Virus record (IMG/VR): IMGVR_UViG_3300003323_000541
Coordinates: 35,902-99,901 of that record
Length of the DNA: 64,000 nt
Strand: one strand, 5' to 3'
Origin: a virus
The first letter of the stretch is position 1. The number at the start of each line of letters is the position of its first letter. The position numbers and the translations under genes were made by a program. This document shows, piece by piece, positions 40,263 to 62,780 of the stretch. The notes under the pieces were generated by a model. It saw nothing but the letters and a program-made list of their open reading frames with translations. It had not been told where the DNA came from and did no database searches.

Positions 40263-41360
40263 TTATTCGTACTTACTATACAAAAACGGATTACCTTCGA
40301 ATTCTTCTAATTTAGGTAATTCTTCAAAGAATCCAGTTTCACCATCCATAGCCATAGACAGATTTACACCTGTTTCTGTGTCTCTGGAGGCAAGAATATG
40401 GAGCGATCGATATCTTTTACCTAGCTTGGTGAGATCGTAGCCCAAATGGCTCTCTAAATGCGGGAAAAGGGTAGGATTGAACAATCCCAATACAAGGGAT
40501 GCATCCTCACCCATATTTCCAGTATCTTTGAAATCTTCCATTGTTGGCTGTAAATCCTCACCGCTAAACTTTAATCTATCGATTTTACCTAATCCTCTGT
40601 TAAACTGAGATACTACAATAGGAGTAAATCTACAGATATTACGAAAGAATACGAAGTATTCACTCATCTTATCTATATTTGCTTTCTTATCATATCCATT
40701 CTCTTTTCTCATTAAACCAACGTGATCAAGAATAATAATGGTATAGAGATTAGGATTATTTTCCTTATAGCCGATTATTCTTTGTTTTTCGACTTTCCTT
40801 CCATTATCATCCATAACCATGTATGGCTCATAGATAAATTGCCCATTCTGCTCAGCATACCTCATTAAATATTTATAGATTCCTGTAGGATTATCTTTCT
40901 CCTCAATAAAATCTATTCTACCTCTTCTTGTACACCGACCATATTGGTCATAAACTCCGAACAAATCTGATAATTCATTTTTGTAGATATCTTCAACTAA
41001 TGAAAGATGTTTAGGATCAAGTTTGTTTTCACCTCTGGAGAGAATGTAATTAGCTGAGCATTGTATTCCATGCTTTATTCTCATGAAGTAAGCACAGAAT
41101 TTAGCCATCTTAGCTAATCTATCAATCTCATATGAAAAATATATCCAATTAATTGGTCTATATTTATTTTCCATATAAGGGGATATAACATACCTGTAGT
41201 CGATAAATGCTGTTTTACCAGTTTTTTGCATAGCTCCTACTACCTCGTACCTAGCTTTTTGTATATTACATACAAATTGATCTAACCTAGGTAATCCTCC
41301 TCTGATTCCTTCGTTTTTACCCTCTAATCCATTGTTTACTTCTTCTAAGAAATCCTTCAT
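40263..41360 (-). CDS. DnaB-like replicative helicase
   Basis: 365 aa from ATG 41360 (MKDFLEEVNNGLEGK); the longer in-frame reading starts inside the upstream gene and is less likely. Walker A is GAMQKTGKTAF (about 42-52), Walker B is TIIILDHVGLM, with PIVVSQFNRGL and ASLVLGLFNP downstream, as in RecA-fold DnaB helicases. It unwinds DNA ahead of the polymerase. Neither an N-terminal DnaB domain nor a zinc site is evident, so it may need a loader, possibly the adjacent 41362-41955 protein. Confidence 0.75.
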   Translation of the reverse strand: MKDFLEEVNNGLEGKNEGIRGGLPRLDQFVCNIQKARYEVVGAMQKTGKTAFIDYRYVISPYMENKYRPINWIYFSYEIDRLAKMAKFCAYFMRIKHGIQCSANYILSRGENKLDPKHLSLVEDIYKNELSDLFGVYDQYGRCTRRGRIDFIEEKDNPTGIYKYLMRYAEQNGQFIYEPYMVMDDNGRKVEKQRIIGYKENNPNLYTIIILDHVGLMRKENGYDKKANIDKMSEYFVFFRNICRFTPIVVSQFNRGLGKIDRLKFSGEDLQPTMEDFKDTGNMGEDASLVLGLFNPTLFPHLESHLGYDLTKLGKRYRSLHILASRDTETGVNLSMAMDGETGFFEELPKLEEFEGNPFLYSKYE

Positions 41361-41361
41361 C

Positions 41362-41955
41362 TTAAATACTCCTTTCTGATTGTTTCTTTTCTTTACCACC
41401 CTCACCATTTAAGGCTGCTTCACAATAACCTGCAAGCACGGACGATCCATCTTTTTCGATGAAATATGGAGCTAATTTGATGTATTCATAATTCTTAGAT
41501 CTCAATTCATTAATATAATTCTTTGTGGCTTGAATTATTATTCCTTGGGTAAATTGTGGATAATTTGTCATAAACTTCTTTAACTTCTTTTCACAACCCT
41601 TAGGGTCTGTTTTGACATAATATCCTCCGGATTTAACACCTGCTGGAAATAAATTCATCCATTCTCCTACGAAGGAGCTAAACGACTTTTCATTTTCATT
41701 TGTTTCAGATTTAACATGATTTTTAAATTTATCGGTTACATATATCTTATTCAGATATGCTTCTCCCGAACTGTTGAAGTTTAATAGGAAGCCTCTCTCC
41801 ACTAAGCTCTCCAATCTTTCTGGATTAATTGATCCAAATTTACCTAAATAGTTTTTAATTCTACTTCGGTCATTTAAATAGATCAATTCCATAAAGATGA
41901 AGTCCTCAAAGGAGAGAGACTCCTTTAAACAAAAATCAATTACGTCTATTATCAT
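41362..41955 (-). CDS. Candidate helicase loader/replisome organiser
   Basis: 197 aa. The latter half (EWMNLFPAGVKSGGYYVKTDPK, then FTQGIIIQATKNYI and YEYIKLAPYFIEKDGSS) resembles phage proteins seen near DnaB genes that act as helicase loaders or replisome organisers. No P-loop is visible, so it is not an AAA-type loader. It sits directly before the helicase gene (one base gap). Function is a context inference. Confidence 0.45.
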   Translation of the reverse strand: MIIDVIDFCLKESLSFEDFIFMELIYLNDRSRIKNYLGKFGSINPERLESLVERGFLLNFNSSGEAYLNKIYVTDKFKNHVKSETNENEKSFSSFVGEWMNLFPAGVKSGGYYVKTDPKGCEKKLKKFMTNYPQFTQGIIIQATKNYINELRSKNYEYIKLAPYFIEKDGSSVLAGYCEAALNGEGGKEKKQSERSI

Positions 41956-42185
41956 AATACATTCTGATATATCAATTTAGAATCTTCTTCTTCTATTGAT
42001 ATAATATAGTCCTGGAGTATTTGATAAGCTTGATATTGATTGATATGAACATTGAATTTATCTTTCAGGATATCTACTATCTTTTCAAGATCAAAAGGAT
42101 CAAGATTATATTCTTTGATAGCAACATCTATATATATCCTTAAAGCTAATGGATTAATCCATCGGGACTTTGTCAAGCTCTGCAT
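41952..42185 (-). CDS. Small helical protein, unknown
   Basis: 77 aa with a hydrophobic helical centre (PFDLEKIVDILKDKFNVHINQYQAYQILQDY). It overlaps the upstream amidotransferase gene by 32 bases and its downstream neighbour by 4. No motif recognised. May be a small DNA-binding or regulatory protein; unproven. Confidence 0.45.
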   Translation of the reverse strand: MQSLTKSRWINPLALRIYIDVAIKEYNLDPFDLEKIVDILKDKFNVHINQYQAYQILQDYIISIEEEDSKLIYQNVL

Positions 42186-43608
42186 GATAGTCGCAATAGC
42201 GTTTGATAAGTTTATTAAAGAACTCTGCGGTAAACGGTCCGTAAGTTACTTTATCCAACTTAATATTAGCTTCTTTTCTTCTGTTAGCCACATCTGATGC
42301 TTTCTTAAACTTACGATATCGGCTTACACTCCATAATGTGGGATCAAATTTATCGTGTTCAGCTTTATTTGAAGCTAATCTTATGGCTCTTTGTTTGTTA
42401 TCACTAAATTGATTCTCGATATACTTTTCAGTACCAATATTAGTTTCCACATATGCACATTTCTGCATGATCATGAACTCTGCTACATATCCAACTACAC
42501 CAACTTTCGATGGAGAAGAAGATAATATAACACGAACACACCATACAGGAACCGACTTATACTGCTTCCAATCAGCGTAATTAGTCGAAAGGAGTTCAAT
42601 AGCATCTCCTTTTTTTATGTTGCATACAGGTCTATCAGAATCAGTTAAGCTATCATAGAGGAACATTTGATCACCGGGAAGAATCCATACACTTCCTTGT
42701 TCAGGATAGATTATCTGTCCATTCTCTGATTTTGTAATATAATCAGAGAAGCCTGATACATTTCTATTCCCTATTCTGGAATTTAAACTGTTACTTTCAC
42801 GATTACCTCCTCTATTTTTCTTTCTGTTCTTTCTTAAGTACCTTTCATAGCGATTGTTCTCATCATTATCATCATCGGAATCACTATAAGAATCTTGAAA
42901 TATTTTACTTTTCCATTGTTCTTCGCTTAACAGATCTAGATCGGAATTATCACCAGATGGCCATCCATAATCCTTTCTTGTCCTGTCAGGTTTGTTAACA
43001 AAACATGCATTTGAAAAGTAATATTCATTGTACTTTTGCCATGTACCAAACAAAGATGTACCTTTATCAAAGGGGAACATCACTATCACTCTATTGGAAG
43101 CATTTACATCCTTCATTATCTTAATGAACAGGACTGTATCCTCAATCAATAAATTACGAAGGTGCTTTTGTGAGTAATATTGTCTTGCTACGTGGTATGT
43201 ATCAGAAAATGCAGAGTGTGTTACATTATAATGATATGAACCGAATACACCATTATGCATCATAACAGGATGATCACGGACAATCGCATCATTTTGGATC
43301 ACCTGATTATGATCATCAGCTAAGATAAAAGGATGTGAATTATCAGAGGTCACATCTCCGGATGTTCCCATACGAAGATGGACAGCAACCTCATCTGTTT
43401 CATTGATTTCCTTTTCTTTAAGATAACTGATCATTTCCTCAGGGGTGAATAATCCTTTATGAACAATTAATCCGGGAGAGCCATCAATTTCTCTTTTAAT
43501 AATAACGCCCATTCCATCATTATTGTTCTTGTAGGAATGAATTATATTATCATAAAAGACTTCTGAATCTACTTGTACGTTATGTGGTTTATATATTATT
43601 AAGCACAT
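42154..43608 (-). CDS. Class II glutamine amidotransferase (Ntn hydrolase)
   Basis: 484 aa. Starts MCLIIYKP, so Cys2 becomes the N-terminal nucleophile after Met removal. Further class II GATase motifs: NNDGMGV, HLRMGTSG, HPF and MMHNGVFGSY. These release ammonia from glutamine. The C-terminal half (residues above about 230) has a charged Asp/Arg-rich linker and a domain of unknown function, so it is not a simple biosynthetic enzyme. It closes the amide-bond gene cluster, next to an amidoligase, and could feed ammonia to it or act on amide products. Confidence 0.8.
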   Translation of the reverse strand: MCLIIYKPHNVQVDSEVFYDNIIHSYKNNNDGMGVIIKREIDGSPGLIVHKGLFTPEEMISYLKEKEINETDEVAVHLRMGTSGDVTSDNSHPFILADDHNQVIQNDAIVRDHPVMMHNGVFGSYHYNVTHSAFSDTYHVARQYYSQKHLRNLLIEDTVLFIKIMKDVNASNRVIVMFPFDKGTSLFGTWQKYNEYYFSNACFVNKPDRTRKDYGWPSGDNSDLDLLSEEQWKSKIFQDSYSDSDDDNDENNRYERYLRKNRKKNRGGNRESNSLNSRIGNRNVSGFSDYITKSENGQIIYPEQGSVWILPGDQMFLYDSLTDSDRPVCNIKKGDAIELLSTNYADWKQYKSVPVWCVRVILSSSPSKVGVVGYVAEFMIMQKCAYVETNIGTEKYIENQFSDNKQRAIRLASNKAEHDKFDPTLWSVSRYRKFKKASDVANRRKEANIKLDKVTYGPFTAEFFNKLIKRYCDYHAELDKVPMD

Positions 43609-43612
43609 TTAT

Positions 43613-45463
43613 TTAAATGGTTAAAAGATCTTTGAAACTGTTGGTGAACCTTCCTTTTCTATTTGCTTCTGAGGTATATTCTTTATCCTCAATCTGAGCA
43701 TTTACATCAGGATCTGCAGGCGAATATTTTTCTTTTTGAGAATTGATATAATTTATTAGTGAATCTCCTTTCCTTCTATAGGAGAAGCGAATTACATCTT
43801 CAATTGTAATCTTCTTTGAAAGAAGGATTTTAACTGAATTATTCTCAACATAGTTAACAAACGCCATACAGAAAAGAATCCAGTTCTTTATCTTGCGATA
43901 GTCCATGGTGGCCTGGTGATTCCTGAATTCTATTGTAAATGCTTTACTGATAGATTCCCTGAAGTTCTGTCCTTTTACTCCTGCAAAATAATGATTAGCA
44001 TTATTTCTTGCAAAGTTACATGGAACAAGATTCAACCATACATACCTTGCTTTAGGATATTGATGAGAGTGCGGAGCAAATTTATTATTATATTTGTTCA
44101 CATTAGCGTCTCCTCCTCTGGATGAACCATCTAAAAGCCATTGATAGATCTCTTCATAGATTTCATCAACAACATCTTTAAGAACATCCGGACTAAGATT
44201 GTTTTCAGTCAATCTCATCTTTTTAATCGAATGAAGTGTAGGAATCTTCCCACATGAGCTACTCATACCCTTGTTAAGATAGTACTCATTTCTTGTATTT
44301 AAACGAGATATAGGCATCATAGAGAATATCTCGTCCTGTAGTCTTAGACCAAGAACATAAGCTGCTACAGTGAAGGTTTTGTTAAACTTAGCACTTCCTA
44401 TGTGAACATGTAGACCACATTTATGATCTACGTTACATTGACGAGCTATATAACCACTTAATGTGGCTAACTGCTTAAATCCACCATCACCTCTTAGTAC
44501 CCCTGAGACATATTCCTTACCTGTAATGGACCCATCATGGCAAGATTTAGCATTTAAATTAAACAAGGCAAAGTCAGGAATATACCCGCTGCTTGTTTCA
44601 ATTTCAACACCAAAAGTATATGGAAGATTCTCCGATACATTGAAACTTCTAGGAGATGAACCAAGCTCAAAATTCCTGTTGATAGCAATCTTATTGGTTT
44701 CACTAAAGGGCACCTTACGAATTACATTCCACTGTGTTCCCTCTTTAGGACCATATCCATAATTCTCTTTAATATAAAGAGTTTCTATAGAGGGTAAAGC
44801 GTACACTCCTGCTTGATAATGATAAACCAATAGACCCTGTTCGCAATATCGCTCAAGGAGATTTATATCAAAGAAATAATCGACCTTTCCTCTCTTCAAA
44901 ATTACAGGTATACCGCTATTCTTTGAACAATAGACGAAGCTTATCTCCTTCTTTAGCTCAAAATCGTATTCAACGATGAGCTTTTTCAACAGTCCTATTG
45001 ACCTTTCATTGCCATCATTTTGGTCGATTTCTTTAGGTGAATTTACTGAATCGAACGCCTTATAGCGCATCTTATTACCTTCATTAACAGCAGGCTCAAA
45101 TTCACTTCCAGGGAAGGTTATGCGTATAGCATTTCCATCCGCGAATACCATCATATATGGATATCCTCCGTAAATTTCGTCTTGGTCAAAGTCTAAACTA
45201 ATCGGGTTACCATTATAATCCTTCTCCTGATTGAGAGCATCTGAAATAAAAAGACGCTCTGATATATCTGAATGAAAGGAAAAGATGGAGCTTGGAAGCG
45301 CCTTATTCTTAAAATGAACAAACTCCTTACCTGACTCATCAACCACAGATTGTTCAACAACAAATGGTCCAGGGGAGGGAAGATTATAAAAATCAACGAC
45401 ATCTGACCAATTCTCGATATATCTGTTAATTCTTATTATACTCCCTTCTTTGTATTTACTCAT
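43613..45463 (-). CDS. Amidoligase (COOH-NH2 ligase, type 1-like)
   Basis: 616 aa. The core contains TFGVEIETSSGYIP, then HDGSITGKEYVSG, LRGDGGFKQLATLSG and KCGLHVHIGSAKF, matching the glutamine-synthetase-fold amidoligase family (acidic metal ligands in EIE, DGS and the HVHI site). The N-terminal ~260 residues are separate and of unknown function. Such enzymes join a carboxyl to an amine using ATP. The start overlaps the class II amidotransferase gene upstream by 4 bases, linking both in one operon. The substrate cannot be told from sequence. Confidence 0.8.
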   Translation of the reverse strand: MSKYKEGSIIRINRYIENWSDVVDFYNLPSPGPFVVEQSVVDESGKEFVHFKNKALPSSIFSFHSDISERLFISDALNQEKDYNGNPISLDFDQDEIYGGYPYMMVFADGNAIRITFPGSEFEPAVNEGNKMRYKAFDSVNSPKEIDQNDGNERSIGLLKKLIVEYDFELKKEISFVYCSKNSGIPVILKRGKVDYFFDINLLERYCEQGLLVYHYQAGVYALPSIETLYIKENYGYGPKEGTQWNVIRKVPFSETNKIAINRNFELGSSPRSFNVSENLPYTFGVEIETSSGYIPDFALFNLNAKSCHDGSITGKEYVSGVLRGDGGFKQLATLSGYIARQCNVDHKCGLHVHIGSAKFNKTFTVAAYVLGLRLQDEIFSMMPISRLNTRNEYYLNKGMSSSCGKIPTLHSIKKMRLTENNLSPDVLKDVVDEIYEEIYQWLLDGSSRGGDANVNKYNNKFAPHSHQYPKARYVWLNLVPCNFARNNANHYFAGVKGQNFRESISKAFTIEFRNHQATMDYRKIKNWILFCMAFVNYVENNSVKILLSKKITIEDVIRFSYRRKGDSLINYINSQKEKYSPADPDVNAQIEDKEYTSEANRKGRFTNSFKDLLTI

Positions 45464-47457
45464 ACTTTAGAAGTTGTATTAGATGTTTTAGTTTTTAATT
45501 CCGGAATACGAAGTTCGATAAAATCCGATACTTCGATAAAAAGCTTATTAAATAAATCCTGAACTTTCTTCTTACCACTAGGTGTATAAATTAAAGCAAG
45601 AGATTCATCATTAGCTTTTATCATTGTCCGCATTATATTTTCATATTCAGCAGAGGCAGAAGAAGAACCATCATCTCGATCTTCTAATACTTCATCCTCT
45701 TCTACTATTTCAACATGTATTTTCTCTCCATCTTCGGTGTGAATAACATGTGTATTTGAACCGGATTTATCCTCTGAAGAAAAGCTTACATACATGTTAG
45801 CCTTACTATTATCAACAGTAAATATTTGCTGAGGTTTTATAGTAGAGGGTATTTTATCTTCGTTATGCAATTTAGGCAGAAGATATAACTTATCACTAAA
45901 TAAATAGTAATTAGATACCACCCAAAATTCCATTCCAGCACCAGAGGAGAGTTTAACCTGTGTACCTTTATCGTGGACTATAGCATTAGCAACTAAGTCG
46001 TTAAAAATGATTTTAACATTTCTCTTACTTATATCACTAGTATGCATGTCCTTATGATAACTATCGATATTATCATATAACCAGTCAAAGGTCATGTAAA
46101 GCCATCCAGCTTCTTCCTGGTTGGTTGATCTTACATATTCTCTTGGTACACGATATCGGTAAATTATATTGGACTTCTCATCCTTATTATAAGCTTGCTG
46201 AATATCGATTATTCTGGTTACTATACAGGTATCAATATCCTGATAGGTTATAAGCACATATTCTCCTTTGGAAAAATACAATTCTCCTGTTACAAAGTCC
46301 TTGAAATCACGAGCAATTACAGCATCTTCCCAATTACTAATGGGAATATGACAATTGAACTTAGTTACGCTCATTTGCTCATAATTACCAGCTTCATTAC
46401 ACACAAGAATTTTATCTCCAGGTAATTGATCCAAGCCTTTGTTCACGAAGTAAAAAGTCCCCTTGATCCAAAGCTTTTTCATATTACCCCCAATATATTG
46501 GATTACATCCTGACCGGAGTATTCTAACCAACATCTTGATGGATATTTCTGCTTAAGATCTAACTGTTTACTAGCAGGGGTACTACCTGAATCTGAAATT
46601 GTGGAAATAGCAGGTGGGGTCATAGGAGATATGGTTTCCTGCTTATTATGCTCGCTGAAAAGCTCAGGTTGTCTTTTTGTAACACCAATCGTATGACTAC
46701 TTGAAGCAGAAGAAACTCCATAATGTCTTTCGTAGTATTCTTCTATAGACTCTGCATCATTATAGGCATATGCAGAAGAATTATATACTTTCATCTTAAC
46801 ATGAATAGGATTCATCTGTACATGACCATTCTGAATGGTATAGAAGTAATCATCAACGAATTCCTTGATATTACTACAACCTATTGCTTCTAGTCCTTCT
46901 CTGACTGAAGATATATAAATACCCTCTTCAGATTTACCACGAAACAGAGGTCTTTCTTTATGCTTATATACATAGAGATTTGATGGTGTCTCCTTATTTA
47001 CTGCAAGGATATTCGCGACACCTGAAAGCATGGGGATAACTGTTTTAGCTTTTTTGTATTTAGCAAAAAGCTTCCCTATAATCTCACTATCAACGTTTAT
47101 CTTTGAATATTGGATATTATCATCCTTTTCATCTCTACATATTTCCCATACATTATCTATCTTCCCGTTGTGAGCAAACACAAGATTACCCTCCTCAAAA
47201 GGATGAGCATTCTCTTTAGTTTTAGCCCCAGTTGTAGCTGCTCGGGTGTGTCCGATAAATATGGAATCCGGAATCAAAGAAAGAGTTGGAAGCATCTTAA
47301 CAGCTACTTTACCAGCTTCTTTTATTAATCCATTATTTGGTGTCCACAAACCAGAGGAATCTGTTCCCCGGTCTTGGTTATAAATCATTAAAAGCTTTAA
47401 TTTATAAGGATCATATACCTTATCCTTAAAGCAACTGACTCCTATTAGTCCACACAT
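45460..47457 (-). CDS. Class II glutamine amidotransferase with long extension
   Basis: 665 aa. MCGLIGVSC gives the Cys2 nucleophile; RGTDSSGLW, HTRAATTG, HPF and AHNGKIDN are further class II motifs. The remaining ~430 residues have no recognised domain and contain a Ser/Pro-rich linker near 260-290. It overlaps the amidoligase and GGCT-like genes. As with the smaller copy, the likely role is releasing ammonia from glutamine for amide formation, with the extension adding specificity. Confidence 0.8.
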   Translation of the reverse strand: MCGLIGVSCFKDKVYDPYKLKLLMIYNQDRGTDSSGLWTPNNGLIKEAGKVAVKMLPTLSLIPDSIFIGHTRAATTGAKTKENAHPFEEGNLVFAHNGKIDNVWEICRDEKDDNIQYSKINVDSEIIGKLFAKYKKAKTVIPMLSGVANILAVNKETPSNLYVYKHKERPLFRGKSEEGIYISSVREGLEAIGCSNIKEFVDDYFYTIQNGHVQMNPIHVKMKVYNSSAYAYNDAESIEEYYERHYGVSSASSSHTIGVTKRQPELFSEHNKQETISPMTPPAISTISDSGSTPASKQLDLKQKYPSRCWLEYSGQDVIQYIGGNMKKLWIKGTFYFVNKGLDQLPGDKILVCNEAGNYEQMSVTKFNCHIPISNWEDAVIARDFKDFVTGELYFSKGEYVLITYQDIDTCIVTRIIDIQQAYNKDEKSNIIYRYRVPREYVRSTNQEEAGWLYMTFDWLYDNIDSYHKDMHTSDISKRNVKIIFNDLVANAIVHDKGTQVKLSSGAGMEFWVVSNYYLFSDKLYLLPKLHNEDKIPSTIKPQQIFTVDNSKANMYVSFSSEDKSGSNTHVIHTEDGEKIHVEIVEEDEVLEDRDDGSSSASAEYENIMRTMIKANDESLALIYTPSGKKKVQDLFNKLFIEVSDFIELRIPELKTKTSNTTSKV

Positions 47458-47882
47458 TCGATTTGTGGTTTAATTGTTTGTTTTATTTTGTCTAATTTTG
47501 GATCATTCCAATCCCCCGATAATACTAAGGACAGTGGATCAATCTCTTTTCCATACACCCAAAATGCCCCACAATACCTTTCAGAGGTCACATAAATGGG
47601 ATCAAATCCAAGTAATTGCATAAAGAAATTAAGCTCACTGTATACGTCCTTATCCATCTCCAGAACATCCACGATAATTGTATCGTTGTAGGAATTTGTT
47701 TGGACACATTGAGAATATGCACCATTATGAAACATGAGGAATCCTCTTATAGTGTAGTCGTTATCAACTACTTTGACAAACTCATCATATTTCTGCTTCA
47801 ATTCAAGATAATGCTCTTGGTTATATCGAAACAAACTATCTACAAAGACAAGAATCGTCTGTTGCTTATCTAAGTCCCTCAT
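47445..47882 (-). CDS. Gamma-glutamylcyclotransferase-like (AIG2-fold) protein
   Basis: 145 aa. The N-terminal VFVDSLFRYN resembles the YGSLxxG start of the fold, with GFLMFHNGAYSQCV and ERYCGAFWVYG further on. GGCT enzymes release pyroglutamate from gamma-glutamyl amides, so it could trim or recycle products of the island. The catalytic Glu is not pinned down by eye. It overlaps both neighbours by short stretches, so it belongs to the same operon. Confidence 0.6.
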   Translation of the reverse strand: MRDLDKQQTILVFVDSLFRYNQEHYLELKQKYDEFVKVVDNDYTIRGFLMFHNGAYSQCVQTNSYNDTIIVDVLEMDKDVYSELNFFMQLLGFDPIYVTSERYCGAFWVYGKEIDPLSLVLSGDWNDPKLDKIKQTIKPQIECVD

Positions 47883-48615
47883 ATTTTCTCATGAGCATTT
47901 TAGGTATTTCCTGGATATATCTCTGAGCAGTAACTTCACCAAAAGAAGGAGCAGAGTTTACCTCAACCACTATGAATTCAGGATTCTCTCTCTTTCTTCC
48001 ATGTCCATCAACACTGCTTTGTACCCTTAAATCAACAGCACAAAAATCCAATCCCACTGATGAGCAAGCCTTTACACATTCTGAAACTATCTGTTCCCAG
48101 TTTACAGGTTTGTCAAAAGAAGCATTATCTTCCAATATCCATACACAGGTACTATCATTTCTGATAAATCTCTTATCCTCCGGTGTATCTCTTTGAAGCA
48201 TCTTCCTACATGTATAGAAGCATCCCTCAGAGTTAACATGCAAACGATATTCACGATTGTATGAATAGTATTTCTCGAATATATAATTGGAAGTAGTCTT
48301 ACCAGCTAACCAATTATCGAATTCCTGCTTTGAATTAAGTAATGATAGTCCTCTACCTCTTGAACCAAAGCGGTTCTTAGCTACTATAGGGAAGGGTAAT
48401 TCACTAATATTAATAAGCTCTTCGGTGATTCCATTCTTCATTTGATCATTCCCGGAGAAAGTCCACCAAAGGGCCGTTTTAACGTTAGCTCCAAAGCATT
48501 TCTTCATTCGAAGCTTATCCGAACTATTCTTTACTGCTTCTGGACTATTAAGCTCAATTCGTCCGTCATTAATTTCTGTAGTTGAACCAAGACGAACCAC
48601 ACTTCTAAAAGGCAT
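47866..48615 (-). CDS. ATP-grasp ligase
   Basis: 249 aa from ATG 48615 (MPFRSVVRLGSTTEI), chosen because the longer frame overlaps the upstream gene by 80 bases. ATP-grasp features: SDKLRMKKCFGA, PIVAKNRFGSRGRGLSL (Lys and Gly-rich loop), NYIFEKYYSYNREYRL, and VVEVNSAPSFG for metal-binding residues at the end. These enzymes activate a carboxylate as acyl-phosphate and join it to an amine. Placement among amidoligases and amidotransferases fits stepwise peptide or amide synthesis; the substrate is unknown. Confidence 0.8.
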   Translation of the reverse strand: MPFRSVVRLGSTTEINDGRIELNSPEAVKNSSDKLRMKKCFGANVKTALWWTFSGNDQMKNGITEELINISELPFPIVAKNRFGSRGRGLSLLNSKQEFDNWLAGKTTSNYIFEKYYSYNREYRLHVNSEGCFYTCRKMLQRDTPEDKRFIRNDSTCVWILEDNASFDKPVNWEQIVSECVKACSSVGLDFCAVDLRVQSSVDGHGRKRENPEFIVVEVNSAPSFGEVTAQRYIQEIPKMLMRKYEGLR

Positions 48616-48640
48616 TCTTTGCAGAGCCCCTCTTAGGATA

Positions 48641-49450
48641 TTATGCGATGGATGCCGGCTTCTTATTTGAGGTCTGAACCTTGTCGAGACTTTTTTTAAT
48701 ATTTTCAATTGAGTTACCATGTTGATTAAAATATGATACTATACCTGAGTTACCATGAAGATTTTCCCATTGAAAAGGACTTTTTTTTTCTGAGGGATCT
48801 TCTTCAAGATATTCTTTCCATGTTTGAGAAATGTCTCCTCCATTGATTAAATAAATATAGAAAGGGACATGCTCTTTTCGCATTGATTTATATATATCTT
48901 CAGAACTACATACTGTTTTACTGTCTAAATTAGTAAATGAATTGAGATAACTCTCAATATCATCCTTACAGTTATAGTTCATACCTATGCGAATAAGTAA
49001 GCCATAGAAGCTAACGAAAACAGGTTTATCTAACCATTTAATATCTGATTTAAACACAACACCTTTTGGTCCTTTTTCTGTACATTTAGCACGTATAGCC
49101 TCTGTTCTTTGAAAGCCTCTGCTATCCTCAAATTTATGCAATAATGAAAGAACTCCATTAAGCATTTCATCTGATATACTATAGTTACATGCTGGTCTTT
49201 CCACAACAGCAAGGTTGAATGTATCACCTACGAATAAAAGATTTGTCTTCTCACTTGTAAATCCGTAGATAGTACGTGAAATCCCATCAATCTCTGTTGC
49301 TACAAATTCTTGAAGATAGTCTTTACATATTATAGGAACATGTAATCCTTGATAATGCTGAGAAAGCATACACATCTGTATCTTCGGAGACAGAGTTTGA
49401 ACTAAACCTGAAGTCTTACTAAAATCTAAATTAATTTCTACTTCTTCCAT
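48641..49450 (-). CDS. Unknown protein of the amidoligase operon
   Basis: 269 aa. No catalytic motif recognised; mixed fold with Cys and Trp scattered, and a Lys-rich tail. It lies between the ATP-grasp and the class I amidotransferase genes, ends 25 bases before the ATP-grasp start and starts two bases after the amidotransferase stop. Because every other gene in this operon belongs to amide-bond chemistry, it may supply a substrate-binding or carrier part; this is inference. Confidence 0.5.
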   Translation of the reverse strand: MEEVEINLDFSKTSGLVQTLSPKIQMCMLSQHYQGLHVPIICKDYLQEFVATEIDGISRTIYGFTSEKTNLLFVGDTFNLAVVERPACNYSISDEMLNGVLSLLHKFEDSRGFQRTEAIRAKCTEKGPKGVVFKSDIKWLDKPVFVSFYGLLIRIGMNYNCKDDIESYLNSFTNLDSKTVCSSEDIYKSMRKEHVPFYIYLINGGDISQTWKEYLEEDPSEKKSPFQWENLHGNSGIVSYFNQHGNSIENIKKSLDKVQTSNKKPASIA

Positions 49451-49452
49451 AA

Positions 49453-50202
49453 TTAAATATCAAACATTTCACTTGCTAACGCATCAAAGAACCCACATTC
49501 GAATTCTTCAGGATGAAATTGAGCAAGTAGGATATTATTCTGTTCATTTTTCATTAGTTCAACACACACAGGAACATCTTCCAATGCATCTATTGCTGAA
49601 CTATTCTTTCTTTTCTGGAACCACGTCTTTGTCTGAATATTCTCATTAGATAAAGAAGGACATCCAGTGTAGACTCTACTCCAACCAAGGACAGTAAATC
49701 CAGGAGCAACATCTTTAACAGCCTGATGATGGTAAGAATTGATCTTTACACTCGCCGCATTTGATTTCATTGCCTGATTACTATATATAGTTTGCATCTC
49801 TTGGGAAGTACTTCCTCTTGATAATTTAGGATCTTGTATATGACCTGCAACATGCTGGTATAAGCTACCACCTAATAAAACATTGATAACTTGCATACCT
49901 CTGCAGATACCAATAGTAGGCTTCTGATCTTCGAGCCAAGCTTTCAACAAGTTATTATCAAGATATTCATAGAAAGGATTAGCTCTTCCATTAAACACAG
50001 AAGGAATATCCCCTGTGATAGAGGGAGAAACGTCTAATCCTCCGGGAACAAGCAGGATATCAATTTGATCTTTAACCTTATTAAGATCATCCCATGGGGT
50101 AATTAACCTAACATGAGCCCTTCTGCTTATCCAGTCAATATATGCTGCATTTTGGGTTATCTTACCCTCAAAGCTATCAGCATAAACACCAATTGTTTTC
50201 AT
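49453..50202 (-). CDS. Class I glutamine amidotransferase (peptidase C26-like), copy 1
   Basis: 249 aa. LLVPGGLDVSPS, then GICRGMQVINVLLGG (Cys100 nucleophile), SYHHQAVKD and AQFHPEE (His230, Glu232) give the catalytic triad layout of gamma-glutamyl hydrolase-type amidotransferases. These act on gamma-glutamyl amides. Copies 2 (55638) and 3 (58095) resemble each other more than this one by eye. It lies directly downstream of the split amidoligase gene, so the two probably act on the same molecule. Confidence 0.85.
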   Translation of the reverse strand: MKTIGVYADSFEGKITQNAAYIDWISRRAHVRLITPWDDLNKVKDQIDILLVPGGLDVSPSITGDIPSVFNGRANPFYEYLDNNLLKAWLEDQKPTIGICRGMQVINVLLGGSLYQHVAGHIQDPKLSRGSTSQEMQTIYSNQAMKSNAASVKINSYHHQAVKDVAPGFTVLGWSRVYTGCPSLSNENIQTKTWFQKRKNSSAIDALEDVPVCVELMKNEQNNILLAQFHPEEFECGFFDALASEMFDI

Positions 50203-50218
50203 TTAATTCTTTTATAGG

Positions 50219-50599
50219 TTAATAAACCAATTCAGGAACGGTGATTGCGTATTTTTCACAAAGAACTCTTGCTGCATCTTTATCATCTTTTTCAATAACA
50301 GATACTGCTTCTTCATATTGTTCCTTAGTAAACTCTTCATTGTTGACAGAGTCTATTGCTCTGATTGTAGAATCCCATGCCCAACCAATGAGCTCATTGT
50401 TCATGATCCAGAAATTGGATAAGGTTCTGTATTCTACTCCATAAGGTTTCATGCGAAAGCTTCCAGGAGCCCCATACATGGCTCTACGACGATTATCTTT
50501 GTCCATTAGTAGTGAAGGTATACCTAAGAAGATATCCATGCGTCTAACGAGCTCTAATGAAGTCTTATCATTAGGATCTTTATATCCTATGTGAATATG
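50219..50599 (-). CDS. Type-2 amidoligase, exon 2
   Basis: Second exon of the split phiEco32-like amidoligase: 126 residues beginning HIHIGYKDPND. An ATG at 50602-50600 precedes it, but its last base is the inferred final intron base, so the protein should not start there. Joined to 50903-51331 it gives a 269-aa protein with the conserved GGHIHIG motif. The C-terminus (YGVEYRTLSNFWIMNNELIGWAWD) matches the family's usual C-terminal core. Confidence 0.8.
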   Translation of the reverse strand, partial: HIHIGYKDPNDKTSLELVRRMDIFLGIPSLLMDKDNRRRAMYGAPGSFRMKPYGVEYRTLSNFWIMNNELIGWAWDSTIRAIDSVNNEEFTKEQYEEAVSVIEKDDKDAARVLCEKYAITVPELVY

Positions 50600-50902
50600 C
50601 ATTTTGTTATCGTTGAGCTTTTTATCTCAACTTCTAGAATCTTCTGTATAAATTCTAGTTCGGCGTACATTTTCTCCTCCAACTTAATGGTAAGGAGCAG
50701 AACACTCTTGGGGATATTATATTCTCTTATTAGAGGTTCAATCCCTACGCTCTACGGTACTAATCCCTATTATGAGACCTAGTTACCACGGTATTTAAGT
50801 AATTTTGCAATTTCGTTTTTCAAAAGAAAAACTAACAGTCTTATTCACCGTATTTGCTCTGTTCAAATTTAGCATTTCTGCTAAAAAGGGCCATTATTGT
50901 CG
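50600..50902 (-). other. Putative group I-like self-splicing intron
   Basis: 303 nt non-coding insert. Its removal joins GGT-GGT with CAT-ATT-CAC in frame and restores GGHIHIG of the amidoligase. The base before it is U and its last base is G, as in group I introns; a short P1 (GGU with GCC, U.G at the splice site) is possible. It holds several hairpins: TTTAGCA with TGCTAAA, GTTTTTC with GAAAAAC, and GGGAU with AUCCC flanking a small CUCU/AGAG hairpin like P7-P8, plus AAATTGCA resembling the P element. No endonuclease ORF is inside. The helices are hand-drawn; the class is not proven. Confidence 0.75.
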
Positions 50903-51331
50903 ACCACCAGTAGTCCGTAAGTTACCTCTTGCATCAGGAGGAGCAATCATACTCATAGTATGAGCAGAGAACTCAGCCATACAGCCAAAGGTACGATTAA
51001 ATTTGTTATTGAGATACTTCTTCTCAAATTCTGCAGAAGCTTTAGATGAAAGGGAAAGTTCAGCAGGTATGGTCTTACGAAGATATTCCATAACAAAATT
51101 AATTTCTTCTGCAAACTGCTCTTTATTTTGACAAGGAGGAATACAGAATTCTGCAGCAACATTGTCTTTTAAGATAAAATGACCTTTATCGCTAATAGGA
51201 TGAGGGTCCCATTTATCCCCGGGAATAATTCCCAATGAAGGAATAAATTCCTCTTTCTCGTCGTTGATTCTTACCAGAAATACCTCAGGATCTGCTCCTA
51301 ATGTTACATTTTCAATTGATAGTTTAGACAT
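50903..51331 (-). CDS. Type-2 amidoligase (COOH-NH2 ligase), exon 1
   Basis: First exon of the split gene: 143 residues from ATG 51331. Shows LGADPEVFLV near the N-terminus, NVAAEFCIPPCQN, FGCMAEFSAHTMS and LRTTGG at its end, all typical of the phiEco32-like type-2 amidoligase. Read on without splicing it would end at a stop at 50894. With exon 2 the enzyme is 269 aa and keeps the ligase core. It starts the amide-bond operon together with the adjacent class I amidotransferase. The exact exon end is inferred from frame, motif and the U/G intron rule. Confidence 0.85.
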
Positions 51332-51338
51332 ACTTAAT

Positions 51339-52496
51339 TTATTTACGGTTTGTAACTTTAAAATGTTTTCTTAATGATTTATCGTCAATACATACAATTC
51401 CTTTTTCGGATTTTATTTCAAATTTATAGCTACCTTTTATGATAATTCCTCCAGATCCTGTTCTTGGAACCCTCACTTTAACAGCATAAGGTACATTTGA
51501 ATTAAATTTACCTCTGTATCTTTGATGGTCCTTACAGATTACTTCAGTTATTCTCTCTCTGTTGTATCTGGGTGGTTTTGGGATTATCAAAAGAAGATCG
51601 CTTGACTTTAAATTAGTCAAATCCAGCTTATATGAAGCTTCAAGATCTTCCAATGCAAATCTTGTATGAACTGAGGATTCGTTTACAGGAGCATGGACAT
51701 TTGCCACGACTCTATTTTTACCGTCTTTTCTGCATGTTATTACTTCATAAGTAGCTTGTAGTCCTTCTGTTATAGGTGAACCCTGTATTTTATCAACCAA
51801 AAGGGACTTTAGCTTCTTATTACCAAACAACTCTACAGACTTGGTATAACTCACTGGTCTAACACGCTCTCTTGACCAATGATATGTTTCCTTTATCGAT
51901 GAAATAGGAACCTCAAGGTTTCCAGATTCAAACGCAATACAAGTTAAATGAAGCTTATTAGGAATAAATGAAACCTTGAATTTTTCAATTTCTAATAATT
52001 CTTCTTCCACCTTAACTATTTTATTGATACATAAATTATGATGGTAGGAATTGAGGTTAAATGAACTAGGTAATCTCTGTTTAACCCATGTATACATTTT
52101 CTCTTCTGTATCATTAGGTACAGCTACCACAAATACATAACTATCGATATCCAGGTTATGCACCTTAACTCCCTCACTTAAATAAGGACTTAAAGAGTCA
52201 AAATAAGCTTCTTTTGTATCAGCTGCACATTCACCTAAGCTGGTAAAATAATTACTTATAGAAAGAAATTCTCTACTGGTCGTAGATAAAGTTAAAACTT
52301 TACCTTTGGCTTCCTTTTTATTGATTATATGACCTAAATAACTAAAGAAGAAGTATTTACAACCAGTTCCGGGCATTGGAGCTGAGGTAACGAAATAATG
52401 GTCAAATCCAATACCTTCGTAAGCTAGTCCTTTTACAATCGAACCCGGTATAATCTTATAGACCACATTACCATTTACTAGTTCTGTTGCTTTCAT
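51339..52496 (-). CDS. Unknown protein upstream of the amidoligase
   Basis: 385 aa. No catalytic motif recognised; basic C-terminus (RVPRTGSGGIIIKGSYKFEIKSEKG) and Arg/Lys-rich patches suggest nucleic-acid or phosphate contacts. It overlaps the end of the DNA polymerase gene by 29 bases and precedes the amidoligase gene by 7 bases. A link to either replication or the amide island cannot be decided. Confidence 0.5.
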   Translation of the reverse strand: MKATELVNGNVVYKIIPGSIVKGLAYEGIGFDHYFVTSAPMPGTGCKYFFFSYLGHIINKKEAKGKVLTLSTTSREFLSISNYFTSLGECAADTKEAYFDSLSPYLSEGVKVHNLDIDSYVFVVAVPNDTEEKMYTWVKQRLPSSFNLNSYHHNLCINKIVKVEEELLEIEKFKVSFIPNKLHLTCIAFESGNLEVPISSIKETYHWSRERVRPVSYTKSVELFGNKKLKSLLVDKIQGSPITEGLQATYEVITCRKDGKNRVVANVHAPVNESSVHTRFALEDLEASYKLDLTNLKSSDLLLIIPKPPRYNRERITEVICKDHQRYRGKFNSNVPYAVKVRVPRTGSGGIIIKGSYKFEIKSEKGIVCIDDKSLRKHFKVTNRK

Positions 52497-54564
52497 TATG
52501 TTCTATCGTTTTAATAATTTTGTTGCATTCATTAATATAGTAGTCATAATTTATGTCATAATCTTTCATTGATTTCTGTTCATATTTATTGAAAACTGTA
52601 CATAGCCAACCTGCTTCGATATTTGTTTCCCTATCCTTTGGTTTAAGTGTATGGTCCTCTACCATAGAAAATATATCTAATTGATTTGGAGAGGTTGCTC
52701 TTAATTTACTCAATTGATCTATCTTTTTAGCAAGTGGAGGTAATACTTTTATTAAACTCACTCCTTTATTTGAAACATAATATCTTGTTGTTTTTGATAA
52801 ATTAGTTTCTGCTACACCATCTTTGTTTATTATTCTGGTGATAAGTGTATTTTCTCCAGTTAATTTACAGAGTTTACAGAATTCATATATATCAGTACAT
52901 TCTTCAATAGTTTTTTCTACAGGTGTACCCTCAAGGAAATATTTTTGAATTGAATAGGGAACTATTCTCATCGAATGATTTTTATGCACTTCCTTATCAC
53001 TCTCAAAATCTCCTTTTAGTTTTACTTCTCCATTAGGCTTTATAGCCATATAGTCATTCACTGAGGTCTGTATTAGCTTAGAATACTCAGCATATTCCAA
53101 CTTACCCATTTGATTATTTCCGACTTTGTTCTCCCAGTTTGAACATATCTGGTAATACAGGTCTGATAGGGATTTGTCAAATAGACATACAATACCATCT
53201 GTATTAGCACTTACAACATGGATATTATTAAGTTCCATGTCTTCTATCAACATTAATATCTCAAATTGATTACCAATTGTACAACTAAAGTGAGACACTG
53301 GAGAATATTGCCAATTTGATGATTCATTTGTTTTTCCAAAGCCACCACCATTCAATGCTAATTTATATACTTCTTCTTTAGATTTTTCTTTAACTTCCTT
53401 TGTAGATTTAAAAGTCTGCTTAGCAAGATCTTTCTTCTCAATGTTTGAAGTATAACCTATCAACCATTCTTCTCCAAGATGTTTAGGAAACAATCTGCGC
53501 TTCTTAATAGCATTGGGGTATTGTGAACCAACATCAGCATCTCTGAGATATTGATTTTCATTTGGAATTATCATCCTGGGTCCTTCACATGAATGTATAC
53601 CACCTTTGGCTATTGTATACTCAGTACCTCTGAATGTGATTTGAAATACCTGACTATCATCATCCTTATTCTTCTTTAAATCTACAGGGGCTACTCTTAC
53701 ATGGTCATAAAATTTTTGAAGTTCTGGGGTCTTAAAGGAAACATAATCAGGAATACAATCTCCAAATGTGAATGGATATACAACAGGAGTTCTCTCTTTG
53801 ATTTCTTTAAAAGATAATCCTGTGTTCTTCATGTAGGTTCTCTTGTTAATTTCATCACCAATTTTTACATCATTGAAATTAACGCAATTAATACCTAATT
53901 CAATTTGTATATCCCTCCTTAGTTGTAATTTATTCTTACCCTTATAGAAGTCTAATTTGTGGTTTGGTATATACTTAGATAGTGTATCGGTATCACCTAT
54001 TGTTAACAAGTATAGCAAATAAGTTGCTAATACATCATGATTATTATAAGAAAGAATAGTATGAATCTCTTCATTATCATAAATCTTTTTACTATGGTGA
54101 ATGGGCATGTCCTCAATATTACCCATTCTAAGAACAAATTCTATGGCCTTTAAGGACATTTTCTTTTGTTTGTTATCAAAATGCCATATTTTGTACAAGT
54201 CTATCTGAAAGATCGATAATCTCCATTCTGGTATAGGAGCCCAACCTGTTTCCCTTGATGTATTAATCACCCAATTTGATATTCTGTATATTTCCTGAGC
54301 TCTGGCTTCACTGCTTAGTTTTAATAGCTTATTTTGTTCTAGTAATATAGTTTCTATCACTTGTCCATCATATGCTATATTATTGAAACCAATAAAGACG
54401 ATCTTGTCCTTTATACATTTATTTAAAAAGTTAATGTAAGAGATAAAATCATCTCTTTCTTTATGTATGACAAATTCTAGCTTTTCTTCCGAATATGGAT
54501 CTCTGAATATAGCTGAATGAAAATTAGCCATACATTCAATATCGTAAATGTAGAATTTTTTCAT
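52468..54564 (-). CDS. Family B DNA polymerase
   Basis: 698 aa. Exonuclease motif I is FYIYDIEC (Asp8, Glu10), motif II FIGFNNIAYDG. Polymerase motif A is DADVGSQYP (342-350), motif B KLALNGGGFGKTN (Lys401), motif C SANTDGI (Asp456). Motif C has TDG in place of the usual DTDS, leaving one clear Asp. The N-terminal exonuclease and palm order is that of family B replicases of crAss-like phages. It copies the genome with the primase and helicase encoded upstream in the map. Confidence 0.85.
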   Translation of the reverse strand: MKKFYIYDIECMANFHSAIFRDPYSEEKLEFVIHKERDDFISYINFLNKCIKDKIVFIGFNNIAYDGQVIETILLEQNKLLKLSSEARAQEIYRISNWVINTSRETGWAPIPEWRLSIFQIDLYKIWHFDNKQKKMSLKAIEFVLRMGNIEDMPIHHSKKIYDNEEIHTILSYNNHDVLATYLLYLLTIGDTDTLSKYIPNHKLDFYKGKNKLQLRRDIQIELGINCVNFNDVKIGDEINKRTYMKNTGLSFKEIKERTPVVYPFTFGDCIPDYVSFKTPELQKFYDHVRVAPVDLKKNKDDDSQVFQITFRGTEYTIAKGGIHSCEGPRMIIPNENQYLRDADVGSQYPNAIKKRRLFPKHLGEEWLIGYTSNIEKKDLAKQTFKSTKEVKEKSKEEVYKLALNGGGFGKTNESSNWQYSPVSHFSCTIGNQFEILMLIEDMELNNIHVVSANTDGIVCLFDKSLSDLYYQICSNWENKVGNNQMGKLEYAEYSKLIQTSVNDYMAIKPNGEVKLKGDFESDKEVHKNHSMRIVPYSIQKYFLEGTPVEKTIEECTDIYEFCKLCKLTGENTLITRIINKDGVAETNLSKTTRYYVSNKGVSLIKVLPPLAKKIDQLSKLRATSPNQLDIFSMVEDHTLKPKDRETNIEAGWLCTVFNKYEQKSMKDYDINYDYYINECNKIIKTIEHNESNRTSKW

Positions 54565-58094: not shown

Positions 58095-58712
58095 TTATAG
58101 ATGAATATAATCGCGTATAAGGCTATTTAAATAATAATGCAGAGAATGGTCAACTACCATCTCCGGATGTCCCTGAATACCTAATGCTTTTATTTTAGGG
58201 TAATATACTATCTCAGATTCAGCAAATCCCTTGGGAAGAGAGATTTCTTCATTATCACCATTCAAATATGTGGTAGATCTGGAAGGAGAGGCTGCAGCAA
58301 TTAGTTCATGTTCCACATCAAAAGGATAGTGCATCTGATGATGTGTAGAGGTCATCTTATAGTCCTTGTTGGTTCTAAGGTCTACTATTTGATGGGTCAT
58401 CCCATGATTGTTCACATGTTGTATTAATTTACCTCCAGCCATTACAGTCAGGAACTGAGAGCCTCTGCATATTCCCAATTTAAATGTATCAGGAAATGCA
58501 TCAAAATACACCTTTTCTCTCTTATCCCGTTCGATATTTGAATAGGTTCTATTTCCCTTTTTTTCACCATAATAAGATGGATCTACATCCTCTCCTCCTG
58601 TGAATAGGATGATATCTGCTTCTTCTGCTCTATTGATTAATTCTTTGTCGTATATCCAATTAGCATAAAAAGTAGATCCTCCAACAACATAAACCTTTAA
58701 TTTATTGTTCAT
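58095..58712 (-). CDS. Class I glutamine amidotransferase (C26-like), copy 3
   Basis: 205 aa. LFTGGEDVDPSYYGEKKG, LGICRGSQFLTVMAGG (Cys82), STHHQMHYP and GIQGHPEM match copy 2 closely (both have GGED, YGEK, QHV and HHQM). The shared pattern suggests a recent duplication with divergence. Gamma-glutamyl hydrolase/amidotransferase activity is inferred. The upstream gene 58709-59347 overlaps by four bases. Confidence 0.8.
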   Translation of the reverse strand: MNNKLKVYVVGGSTFYANWIYDKELINRAEEADIILFTGGEDVDPSYYGEKKGNRTYSNIERDKREKVYFDAFPDTFKLGICRGSQFLTVMAGGKLIQHVNNHGMTHQIVDLRTNKDYKMTSTHHQMHYPFDVEHELIAAASPSRSTTYLNGDNEEISLPKGFAESEIVYYPKIKALGIQGHPEMVVDHSLHYYLNSLIRDYIHL

Positions 58713-59347
58713 TTCTTTCGTTTTTCGATCTTAAGTTCGGCAATAACATTATCAATGTTCGCTTCTTTGGTTTTAATTTTAACCCTGGAAGCATGATCGG
58801 GATCATTCAAAAGTCTTGAACAGTCTCCAACGTACTTAAAGGTACTATTATACAATAATGCTTTGAATTCTTCGTTAGTAAATAGGGTAACTCCATCGTG
58901 ATCATAGAGAGAATGATTTGCATTGAAAAATCCATCTAAAGCATAATGAGCCAATGCTAATGCTTCACTTTCCTCTAAGTCATATTCATCAAGAAGTCGT
59001 ATCACCAAAGGAACTATTCTGTGAAAATTATCAAATCCATGTTCCCAAATGTATCTAATGACTTGACAGCACAATATACCATGAATCCTATTTACAGCAT
59101 TGAAGCTTACAGTATTAAGTTCTTCATTGTAATCCAACTTACCAAAGAGAACAGATAATATATCGATATATTTCTTTATATTTTCTTTTGTTTGCGGGTT
59201 ATCTAATATGTGAACCTCTATCCTGTTTAAATCTTTCATGTAAGGCCAACCTTCTGAAAAACATACATCAGGTCTTTCCTTAATACGATCACAGAGTACA
59301 TTATCTTTACTGTCCTTAATTATAAATTTAGCTCCGTAACTTCCCAT
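58709..59347 (-). CDS. Unknown protein paired with amidotransferase copy 3
   Basis: 212 aa, helix-rich in the middle (EHGFDNFHRIVPLVIRLLDE, ALAHYALDGFFNAN) with a charged tail (ELKIEKRKK). No domain recognised. Coupled to the amidotransferase by an overlapping stop/start. Confidence 0.5.
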   Translation of the reverse strand: MGSYGAKFIIKDSKDNVLCDRIKERPDVCFSEGWPYMKDLNRIEVHILDNPQTKENIKKYIDILSVLFGKLDYNEELNTVSFNAVNRIHGILCCQVIRYIWEHGFDNFHRIVPLVIRLLDEYDLEESEALALAHYALDGFFNANHSLYDHDGVTLFTNEEFKALLYNSTFKYVGDCSRLLNDPDHASRVKIKTKEANIDNVIAELKIEKRKK

Positions 59348-61614: not shown

Positions 61615-61709
61615 TTACTAATTAGACGTTAATTATTGTTAGAGTAGCCTCATGTACAGAATAGTATATGGGGCTTTTCGTTTTTATCCTTTTAAGTTCT
61701 CATCAATTA

Positions 61710-62649: not shown

Positions 62650-62780
62650 GCCGGAATAGCTCAGTATAAATCTAGAAAATACAATCCTCAGACTTCCAAT
62701 TTGACTGATTGTATAAAGATTAGGTAGAGCGCCAACCCTAATTGGTTCGGAGGTCGCGAGTTCGAGTCTCGTTTCCGGCT
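62650..62780 (+). tRNA. Aberrant tRNA-Thr-like sequence with long D-loop insert
   Basis: Acceptor GCCGGAA/TTCCGGC with T discriminator, D stem GCTC/GAGC and T arm GCGAG-TTCGAGT-CTCGT are those of a Bacteroidota tRNA-Thr. The D-loop is about 64 nt instead of 8, with an internal hairpin TACAATC/GATTGTA. The anticodon arm is abnormal (CCAACC...GGTTCGG, two extra bases and a bulge), so no clear anticodon is seen. Followed by TTTTTG. It is likely a decayed or mobile-element tRNA copy; function unproven. Confidence 0.5.

What the first reader, a model, noticed from the sequence alone, without database searches (positions are those of the whole stretch)
42154..51331. Amide-bond synthesis island in a crAss-like phage
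Within 9 kb the minus strand holds two amidoligases of different types, an ATP-grasp ligase, two class II and one class I glutamine amidotransferase and a GGCT-like protein, with an extra unknown gene (48641). Genomic work on phiEco32-like phages predicted that such combinations make or modify peptides or tag proteins. The phage devotes about a seventh of the window to this chemistry. Possible targets include cell-wall peptides, polyglutamate-like polymers or a host protein tag; the sequence cannot tell.
Basis: partly seen in the sequence, partly recalled or inferred. Interest (0 to 1): 0.85.

Follow-up and report, generated by a model that had tools for sequence, protein, structure and literature searches.

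The report
Amide-ligase gene cassette in a crAss-like phage
A phage related to crAssphage carries a conserved, already-known set of genes for making and breaking amide bonds; what it builds is still unknown, and one of its ligase genes is interrupted by a self-splicing-type intron inside the active-site motif.

Summary
The island is real. On the minus strand are a COOH-NH2 ligase, an Amidoligase_2, a RimK-like ATP-grasp, two class II glutamine amidotransferases (GATases), a class I (C26) GATase, a GGCT-like protein and an orphan gene (X269). It is not unique. ATP-grasp, COOH-NH2 ligase, GATase II and Amidoligase_2 co-occur in 45/45 loci with full flanks, mostly crAss-like contigs, and in Cellulophaga phage phi14:2, cr108_1, LUZ24, phiEco32 and RIO-1/HP1. 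The literature already calls it a putative 'peptidoglycan modification cassette'.

New here:
- The COOH-NH2 ligase gene is interrupted (50600-50902) inside its GGHIHIG motif by a group-I-type intron. Relatives carry inserts in both ligase genes; several encode LAGLIDADG endonucleases.
- The window's GGCT-like protein has lost its catalytic motifs; the other active sites are intact.
- Gene adjacency pairs Amidoligase_2 with GATase II, and COOH-NH2 ligase with C26.
- Published restriction digests of a LUZ24-type carrier argue against DNA hypermodification.

Best reading: a cytoplasmic pathway of gamma-glutamyl and amide ligations plus matching deglutamylases or glutaminases. The acceptor is unproven; a cell-wall precursor is the leading candidate. 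It is a new member of a known kind with variant features.

The parts
50903..51331 (-). 5' exon of the COOH-NH2 ligase (PF14395, GS/GCS2 fold), ends in ...TTGG
   Evidence: D14, E16, D56, E61 and R139 of the family kept
50600..50902 (-). 303-nt group-I-type intron in the GG^HIHIG motif of the COOH-NH2 ligase gene; 5' exon ends in U, intron ends in G, no long ORF
   Evidence: fold z -3.28; similar stretches in 37 phage records; P7 covariation; Rfam negative
50219..50599 (-). 3' exon of the COOH-NH2 ligase (HIHIG...; E199, R201)
49453..50202 (-). class I GATase / peptidase C26, catalytic C100-H230-E232 intact
48641..49450 (-). X269, orphan protein family found in nine cassette loci; no Pfam, PHROG or PDB-fold match
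47866..48720 (-). RimK-like ATP-grasp ligase; K115, E149, D230 and E253 kept. The annotated start overlaps X269 and may be too early
47445..47882 (-). GGCT-like protein, degenerate: YGTL is DSLF and the LDxxEG glutamate is lost; probably not catalytic
45460..47457 (-). class II GATase (Cys2, R72, N97-G98, D123) with a long C-terminal extension and no recognised synthase domain
43613..45463 (-). Amidoligase_2 (PF12224); E287, E289, D310, E317, H352, H354, R473, E512 and R514 kept
42154..43608 (-). second class II GATase-like protein (MCLI..., R79, N119-G120)
   Evidence: homologue in L001 at the same place
58095..58712 (-). third C26 class I GATase; C82-H182-E184 intact
58709..59347 (-). 212-aa 'Z' family protein overlapping the third C26 gene; relatives sit beside C26 or COOH-NH2 ligase genes in other cassettes

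Best explanation
The genes form one conserved cytoplasmic pathway for making and trimming amide bonds on a glutamate-type acceptor. Two GS-fold ligases (COOH-NH2 ligase, Amidoligase_2) and one RimK-like ATP-grasp enzyme would activate a carboxylate with ATP and join it to an amine. Class II GATases would supply ammonia from glutamine or cleave gamma-glutamyl amides. C26 enzymes would hydrolyse gamma-glutamyl bonds. The gene pairs resemble known ligase/deglutamylase pairs (from my own knowledge: PuuA/PuuD, EgtA/EgtC, BtrJ/BtrG). Shown: homology, intact active sites, strict linkage, gene pairing, and a YbdK/GCS2-like fold for the COOH-NH2 ligase. Inferred: reaction order, use of glutamate, and the acceptor. 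The most likely acceptor is a soluble cell-wall (peptidoglycan) precursor or another small peptide, not DNA. The COOH-NH2 ligase is probably made only after splicing of a group-I-type intron.
For: Core of four in 45/45 full-flank loci, GGCT and C26 in 40/45. Same set in phi14:2, Lbo-JY46 and cr108_1 (cr108_1 without a GGCT in the cluster), HP1, phiEco32 and LUZ24. Adjacency over 30 distinct gene orders: Amidoligase_2-GATase II 27/30 and COOH-NH2 ligase-C26 17/21, neither reached in 1000 shuffles; ATP-grasp-GGCT 10/19, p 0.065. Active sites kept. Ligase model pLDDT 92.9; best folds YbdK and plant glutamate-cysteine ligase, E about 1e-5. ATP-grasp nearest RimK-family glutamate ligases, E 7e-12 but below cut-off; C26 enzymes weakly nearest gamma-glutamyl hydrolases. 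Hosts in the displayed rows are all diderm bacteria.
Against: No member has a proven activity. The peptidoglycan target is only a hypothesis in the literature. The window's GGCT-like protein looks dead, so an active ATP-grasp/GGCT pair cannot be essential here. Family matches that hint at glutamyl substrates are below curated cut-offs. Many sampled loci are related, so adjacency partly reflects descent. The ATP-grasp also sits beside C26 (15/21), so the pairing is not one-to-one.
Confidence: 0.6

Rival explanations
1. The cassette makes a free, specialised small molecule or peptide conjugate (an inhibitor, cofactor or signalling compound), with gamma-glutamyl groups used as removable handles.
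For: Three unrelated ligase types alongside up to three unrelated gamma-glutamyl-cleaving or glutaminase types. Precedents in amine, ergothioneine and butirosin pathways (own knowledge). COOH-NH2 ligase fold is YbdK/GCS2-like.
Against: No scaffold-forming enzyme, exporter or carrier protein was recognised in the cassette.
Confidence: 0.3
2. Protein tagging: the RimK-like ATP-grasp adds amino acids to a host or phage protein, and the other enzymes edit the tag.
For: RimK family is the best NCBIfam match (E 6.7e-12, below cut-off). Protein-modification roles have been proposed for phage R2K ATP-grasp ligases (PMC4431377).
Against: No candidate target protein or tag gene was recognised travelling with the cassette. 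X269 was found in only 9 loci.
Confidence: 0.12
3. Hypermodification of phage DNA with amino acids.
For: The cassette often lies next to primase, helicase or polymerase genes.
Against: DNA of the LUZ24-type phage U17, which carries the cassette, is cut by 11 of 16 enzymes (PMC11945000). The related LUZ24 genome has no site for exactly 5 enzymes of that panel. No base-modifying enzyme was recognised in the cassette.
Confidence: 0.04
4. Auxiliary nitrogen or amino-acid metabolism that helps the host use nitrogen.
For: Proposed for Planctomycetes phage ZRK32, which carries related genes (PMC10945688).
Against: The strict four-gene core with two different amidoligases is not explained by bulk nitrogen assimilation. 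The supporting experiment was growth with whole phage, not with the genes.
Confidence: 0.06

Closest known systems
'Peptidoglycan modification cassette' of RIO-1/HP1, phiEco32, LUZ24 and relatives
   Same: COOH-NH2 ligase, Amidoligase_2, class II GATase, RimK-like ATP-grasp and GGCT in one cluster, often near primase/helicase
   Different: Window has a second class II GATase, three C26 enzymes, the orphan X269, a degenerate GGCT and a ligase gene with an intron; gene order differs
Cellulophaga phage phi14:2 (g037-g041) and cr108_1 cassettes, Crassvirales Steigviridae
   Same: Same core enzymes, also between replication genes; ATP-grasp 51% identical to phi14:2
   Different: Gene order differs from the window. 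phi14:2 has no C26, X269 or second GATase II in the cluster and its GGCT keeps the active motifs; cr108_1 has no GGCT in the cluster
IMG/VR contigs L001, L068-L070
   Same: Same extended set: C26, X, COOH-NH2 ligase, ATP-grasp, GGCT, GATase II, Amidoligase_2, GATase II
   Different: COOH-NH2 ligase gene uninterrupted; GGCT has the active motifs (L001, L068, L070 aligned); order differs at the 5' end
Group I introns of crAss-like phages (PMC7886860)
   Same: Group-I-type introns, some relatives with LAGLIDADG ORFs, in conserved genes
   Different: [quoted passage not shown] here the host genes are the two amide ligases

Membership tests
Phage amide-ligase ('peptidoglycan modification') cassette | COOH-NH2 ligase PF14395 | tested here: met
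   Pfam E 1.1e-10, PHROG 3815 E 6.6e-37
Phage amide-ligase ('peptidoglycan modification') cassette | Amidoligase_2 PF12224 | tested here: met
   E 1.3e-9, above cut-off
Phage amide-ligase ('peptidoglycan modification') cassette | RimK-like ATP-grasp | tested here: met
   PHROG 2599 E 3.9e-33; 44-53% identical to cassette homologues
Phage amide-ligase ('peptidoglycan modification') cassette | class II GATase in the cluster | tested here: met
Phage amide-ligase ('peptidoglycan modification') cassette | active GGCT | tested here: not met
   homologue present but catalytic motifs lost; GGCT is also not found in 5 of 45 full-flank loci, so an active GGCT is not universal in the family
Phage amide-ligase ('peptidoglycan modification') cassette | acts on peptidoglycan | not testable with these tools
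   hypothesis in the literature only
Group I intron | 5' exon ends in U and intron ends in G | tested here: met
   five homologous inserts
Group I intron | P7 helix conserved by covariation | tested here: met
   GGGAU/AUCCC, GGUAA/UUACC, GGAGU/AUUCC
Group I intron | match to Rfam RF00028 | tested here: not met
   no hit for the COOH-NH2 ligase inserts even at relaxed E; a sub-threshold RF00028 hit in L059 (17632-17833) overlaps its Amidoligase_2 insert
Group I intron | self-splicing | not testable with these tools
   needs RNA
DNA hypermodification pathway | genome resistant to restriction | tested here: inconclusive
   negative for a LUZ24-type carrier by proxy; not testable for this phage
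Crassvirales | crAss-type major capsid protein | tested here: met
   about 32% identity over 98-99% of the protein

The most novel reading that the evidence does not exclude
The cassette is a phage-borne biosynthetic pathway that uses gamma-glutamyl groups as removable handles, with each ligase matched to a deglutamylase, to make a so far unknown compound or conjugate during infection in many unrelated phages of diderm bacteria.
Probability: 0.3. Interest if true: 0.85.

Novelty: new member of a known kind. Interest (0 to 1): 0.5.

Why it matters
The same core gene set recurs in unrelated phages of Pseudomonas, Escherichia, Vibrio, cyanobacteria and Bacteroidota, yet its product has been an open question for over a decade. 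Here it is shown to be a fixed part of many environmental crAss-like phages; a cultured carrier with a known host (phi14:2) makes it directly testable. The restriction comparison argues against DNA modification, and the pairing of ligases with glutaminases or deglutamylases narrows the chemistry. Repeated intron insertion at active-site codons suggests that the ligase genes are strongly conserved targets, that is, that they matter to these phages.

Tried and rejected
- Rfam scan of the insert: no match, although its relatives and P7 covariation support a group I intron.
- Frameshift or pseudogene for the split ligase: rejected because both exons are conserved, the insert lies exactly between GG and HIHIG, and homologous inserts occur in relatives.
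- Structure search of X269 (pLDDT 73): no PDB match. Weak BFVD matches to proteins of cassette-bearing phages, including a 300-aa protein of cr108_1, were not supported by profile-profile comparison, so kinship of X269 with the Z family is left open.
- DNA modification: argued against.
- Contigs L092 and L093, filed as archaeal MAGs, carry COOH-NH2 ligases. They come from metagenome bins and L092 looks like a crAss-type cassette, so they were not used as evidence about archaea.
- Iyer et al. 2009 and Hardies et al. 2013 are not held in the library; their claims are cited second-hand from PMC5498523 and PMC11945000.
- PDB sequence searches with the two amidoligase profiles gave nothing useful.

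Full report
Where it lies. The window is the last 64 kb of a 99.9-kb virus record. Its capsid protein (L007:6406-7896) is about 32% identical to Crassvirales capsids, so it is a divergent crAss-like phage. Genes from about 32.6 to 60.2 kb are on the minus strand, with replication functions around the island: a DNA-polymerase-like gene at 52468-54564 (read by eye from the sequence) and a DnaB-like gene at 40263-41408.

What is there. In transcription order the island reads: COOH-NH2 ligase (51331-50219, split), C26 class I GATase, X269, RimK-like ATP-grasp, GGCT-like, class II GATase, Amidoligase_2, second class II GATase. The genes overlap or abut: 45463/45460, 47457/47445, 47882/47866, 49450/49453. 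Two more C26 genes lie upstream, at 55638 and 58095. Conserved residues of the ligases, the ATP-grasp, all three C26 enzymes and both class II GATases are intact. The exception is the GGCT-like protein, whose YGTL and LDxxEG motifs are gone.

It is a conserved module. A scan with the ATP-grasp profile found 156 relatives in viral contigs, of which 80 were kept. Among 45 loci with full flanks, window included, ATP-grasp, COOH-NH2 ligase, class II GATase and Amidoligase_2 are present in all 45, GGCT in 40 and C26 in 40. Of 25 long contigs tested, 22 carry a crAss-type capsid gene. Deposited genomes with the set include phi14:2, Lbo-JY46 and cr108_1, HP1, phiEco32, LUZ24 and phages of Klebsiella, Rhizobium, Vibrio, Aeromonas and Citrobacter. 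In the phage collection 315 records match the COOH-NH2 ligase; every bacterial host named in the rows shown is diderm. Only a sample of rows was displayed, so absence from monoderm hosts is suggested, not shown. 124 records match the capsid protein, but among crAss-like records only phi14:2 and cr108_1 appeared in the ATP-grasp search; the cassette is therefore uncommon in deposited crAss-like phages but common in this environmental set.

Gene pairing. Over 30 distinct gene orders, Amidoligase_2 is next to a class II GATase in 27, and COOH-NH2 ligase next to C26 in 17 of 21. Neither was reached in 1000 shuffles. ATP-grasp is next to C26 in 15 of 21, and next to GGCT in 10 of 19 (p 0.065). Related loci inflate such counts, but podoviral orders differ from crAss-like orders.

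Chemistry. The COOH-NH2 ligase model of the close relative L001 (pLDDT 92.9) matches YbdK-type and plant glutamate-cysteine ligases and then glutamine synthetases. The ATP-grasp is nearest the RimK glutamate-ligase family; the C26 enzymes are weakly near gamma-glutamyl hydrolases; the class II GATase is nearest GlmS and PurF, and more weakly EgtC (all below cut-offs). From general knowledge, GS-fold or ATP-grasp ligases working with a dedicated gamma-glutamyl-removing enzyme occur in the Puu, ergothioneine and butirosin pathways. The cassette contains the same enzyme types, hence the proposed mechanism. The acceptor is inferred.

DNA modification. U17, a LUZ24-type phage with the cassette, has DNA sensitive to 11 of 16 restriction enzymes (PMC11945000). 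The LUZ24 genome itself lacks sites for five of the panel (SmaI, PstI, SalI, NotI, XhoI). All enzymes with sites therefore appear to cut. This uses LUZ24 as a stand-in for U17, and the paper is not consistent on whether one enzyme is HpaI or HpaII; LUZ24 has sites for both.

The intron. The COOH-NH2 ligase reading frame stops after ...LRTTGG and resumes at HIHIGY; the 303-nt insert 50600-50902 lies between. It folds better than shuffled sequence (z -3.28) and resembles stretches in 37 phage records, one annotated as a homing endonuclease (the weakest of these matches are near E 1). Relatives L058, L059 and L092 have inserts one codon upstream, and L052 has one at another conserved motif. The inserts of L052, L059 and L092 encode ORFs with LAGLIDADG-type motifs; Pfam confirms LAGLIDADG_3 in the two tested, from L052 and L092. 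Five inserts are homologous; each 5' exon ends in U, each insert ends in G, and the P7 helix is kept by compensatory changes. Amidoligase_2 is also interrupted in five loci, three of them after the same arginine codon. No inserts were found in GATase II or ATP-grasp genes, and one in a C26 gene. Group I introns are known in crAss-like phages (PMC7886860); the amide ligases as hosts were not among those named in the passages read.

Orphans. X269 is conserved in nine cassette loci; its model has no PDB match. A second family, Z (window 58709-59347), overlaps the third C26 gene; relatives often lie beside C26 or COOH-NH2 ligase genes.

Verdict. The cassette is a new member of a known kind, with variant features and a disrupted-looking but probably spliced ligase gene.

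Noticed in passing
window 62650-62780 (+): A tRNA-like gene (Rfam tRNA 34.2 bits) with a roughly 60-nt insertion in the D-loop region; ARAGORN does not call it. It follows an IS1595-type transposase.
   Followed up: partly
window 61668-62636 (+): IS1595-type transposase ORF (PF12762 E 4.5e-44) in a phage genome; no inverted repeats of 15 or more bases found around it.
   Followed up: partly
window 1265-2377 (+): 370-aa ORF with a NUMOD1 domain, a likely homing-endonuclease-type gene among structural genes.
   Followed up: no
L030 14250-15152, L034 14090-14331, L037 13888-14768, L059 16964-17868, L090 12128-12979: Amidoligase_2 genes of relatives are interrupted too; in L037, L059 and L090 the insert follows the same arginine codon.
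   Followed up: partly
L092 4583-5749 and 5915-7087: One COOH-NH2 ligase gene carries two separate inserts, each with an ORF of LAGLIDADG type, in a contig filed as an archaeal MAG.
   Followed up: partly
L100 16009-18777 and L004 2918-7127: Aeromonas phage LAh_6 and Leptolyngbya phage Lbo-JY46 carry PRPP synthetase and nicotinate phosphoribosyltransferase genes near the cassette.
   Followed up: no
window 14291-28345 (+): A single ORF of 4684 aa, the largest in the window; its size recalls the giant RNA-polymerase-region proteins of crAss-like phages.
   Followed up: no
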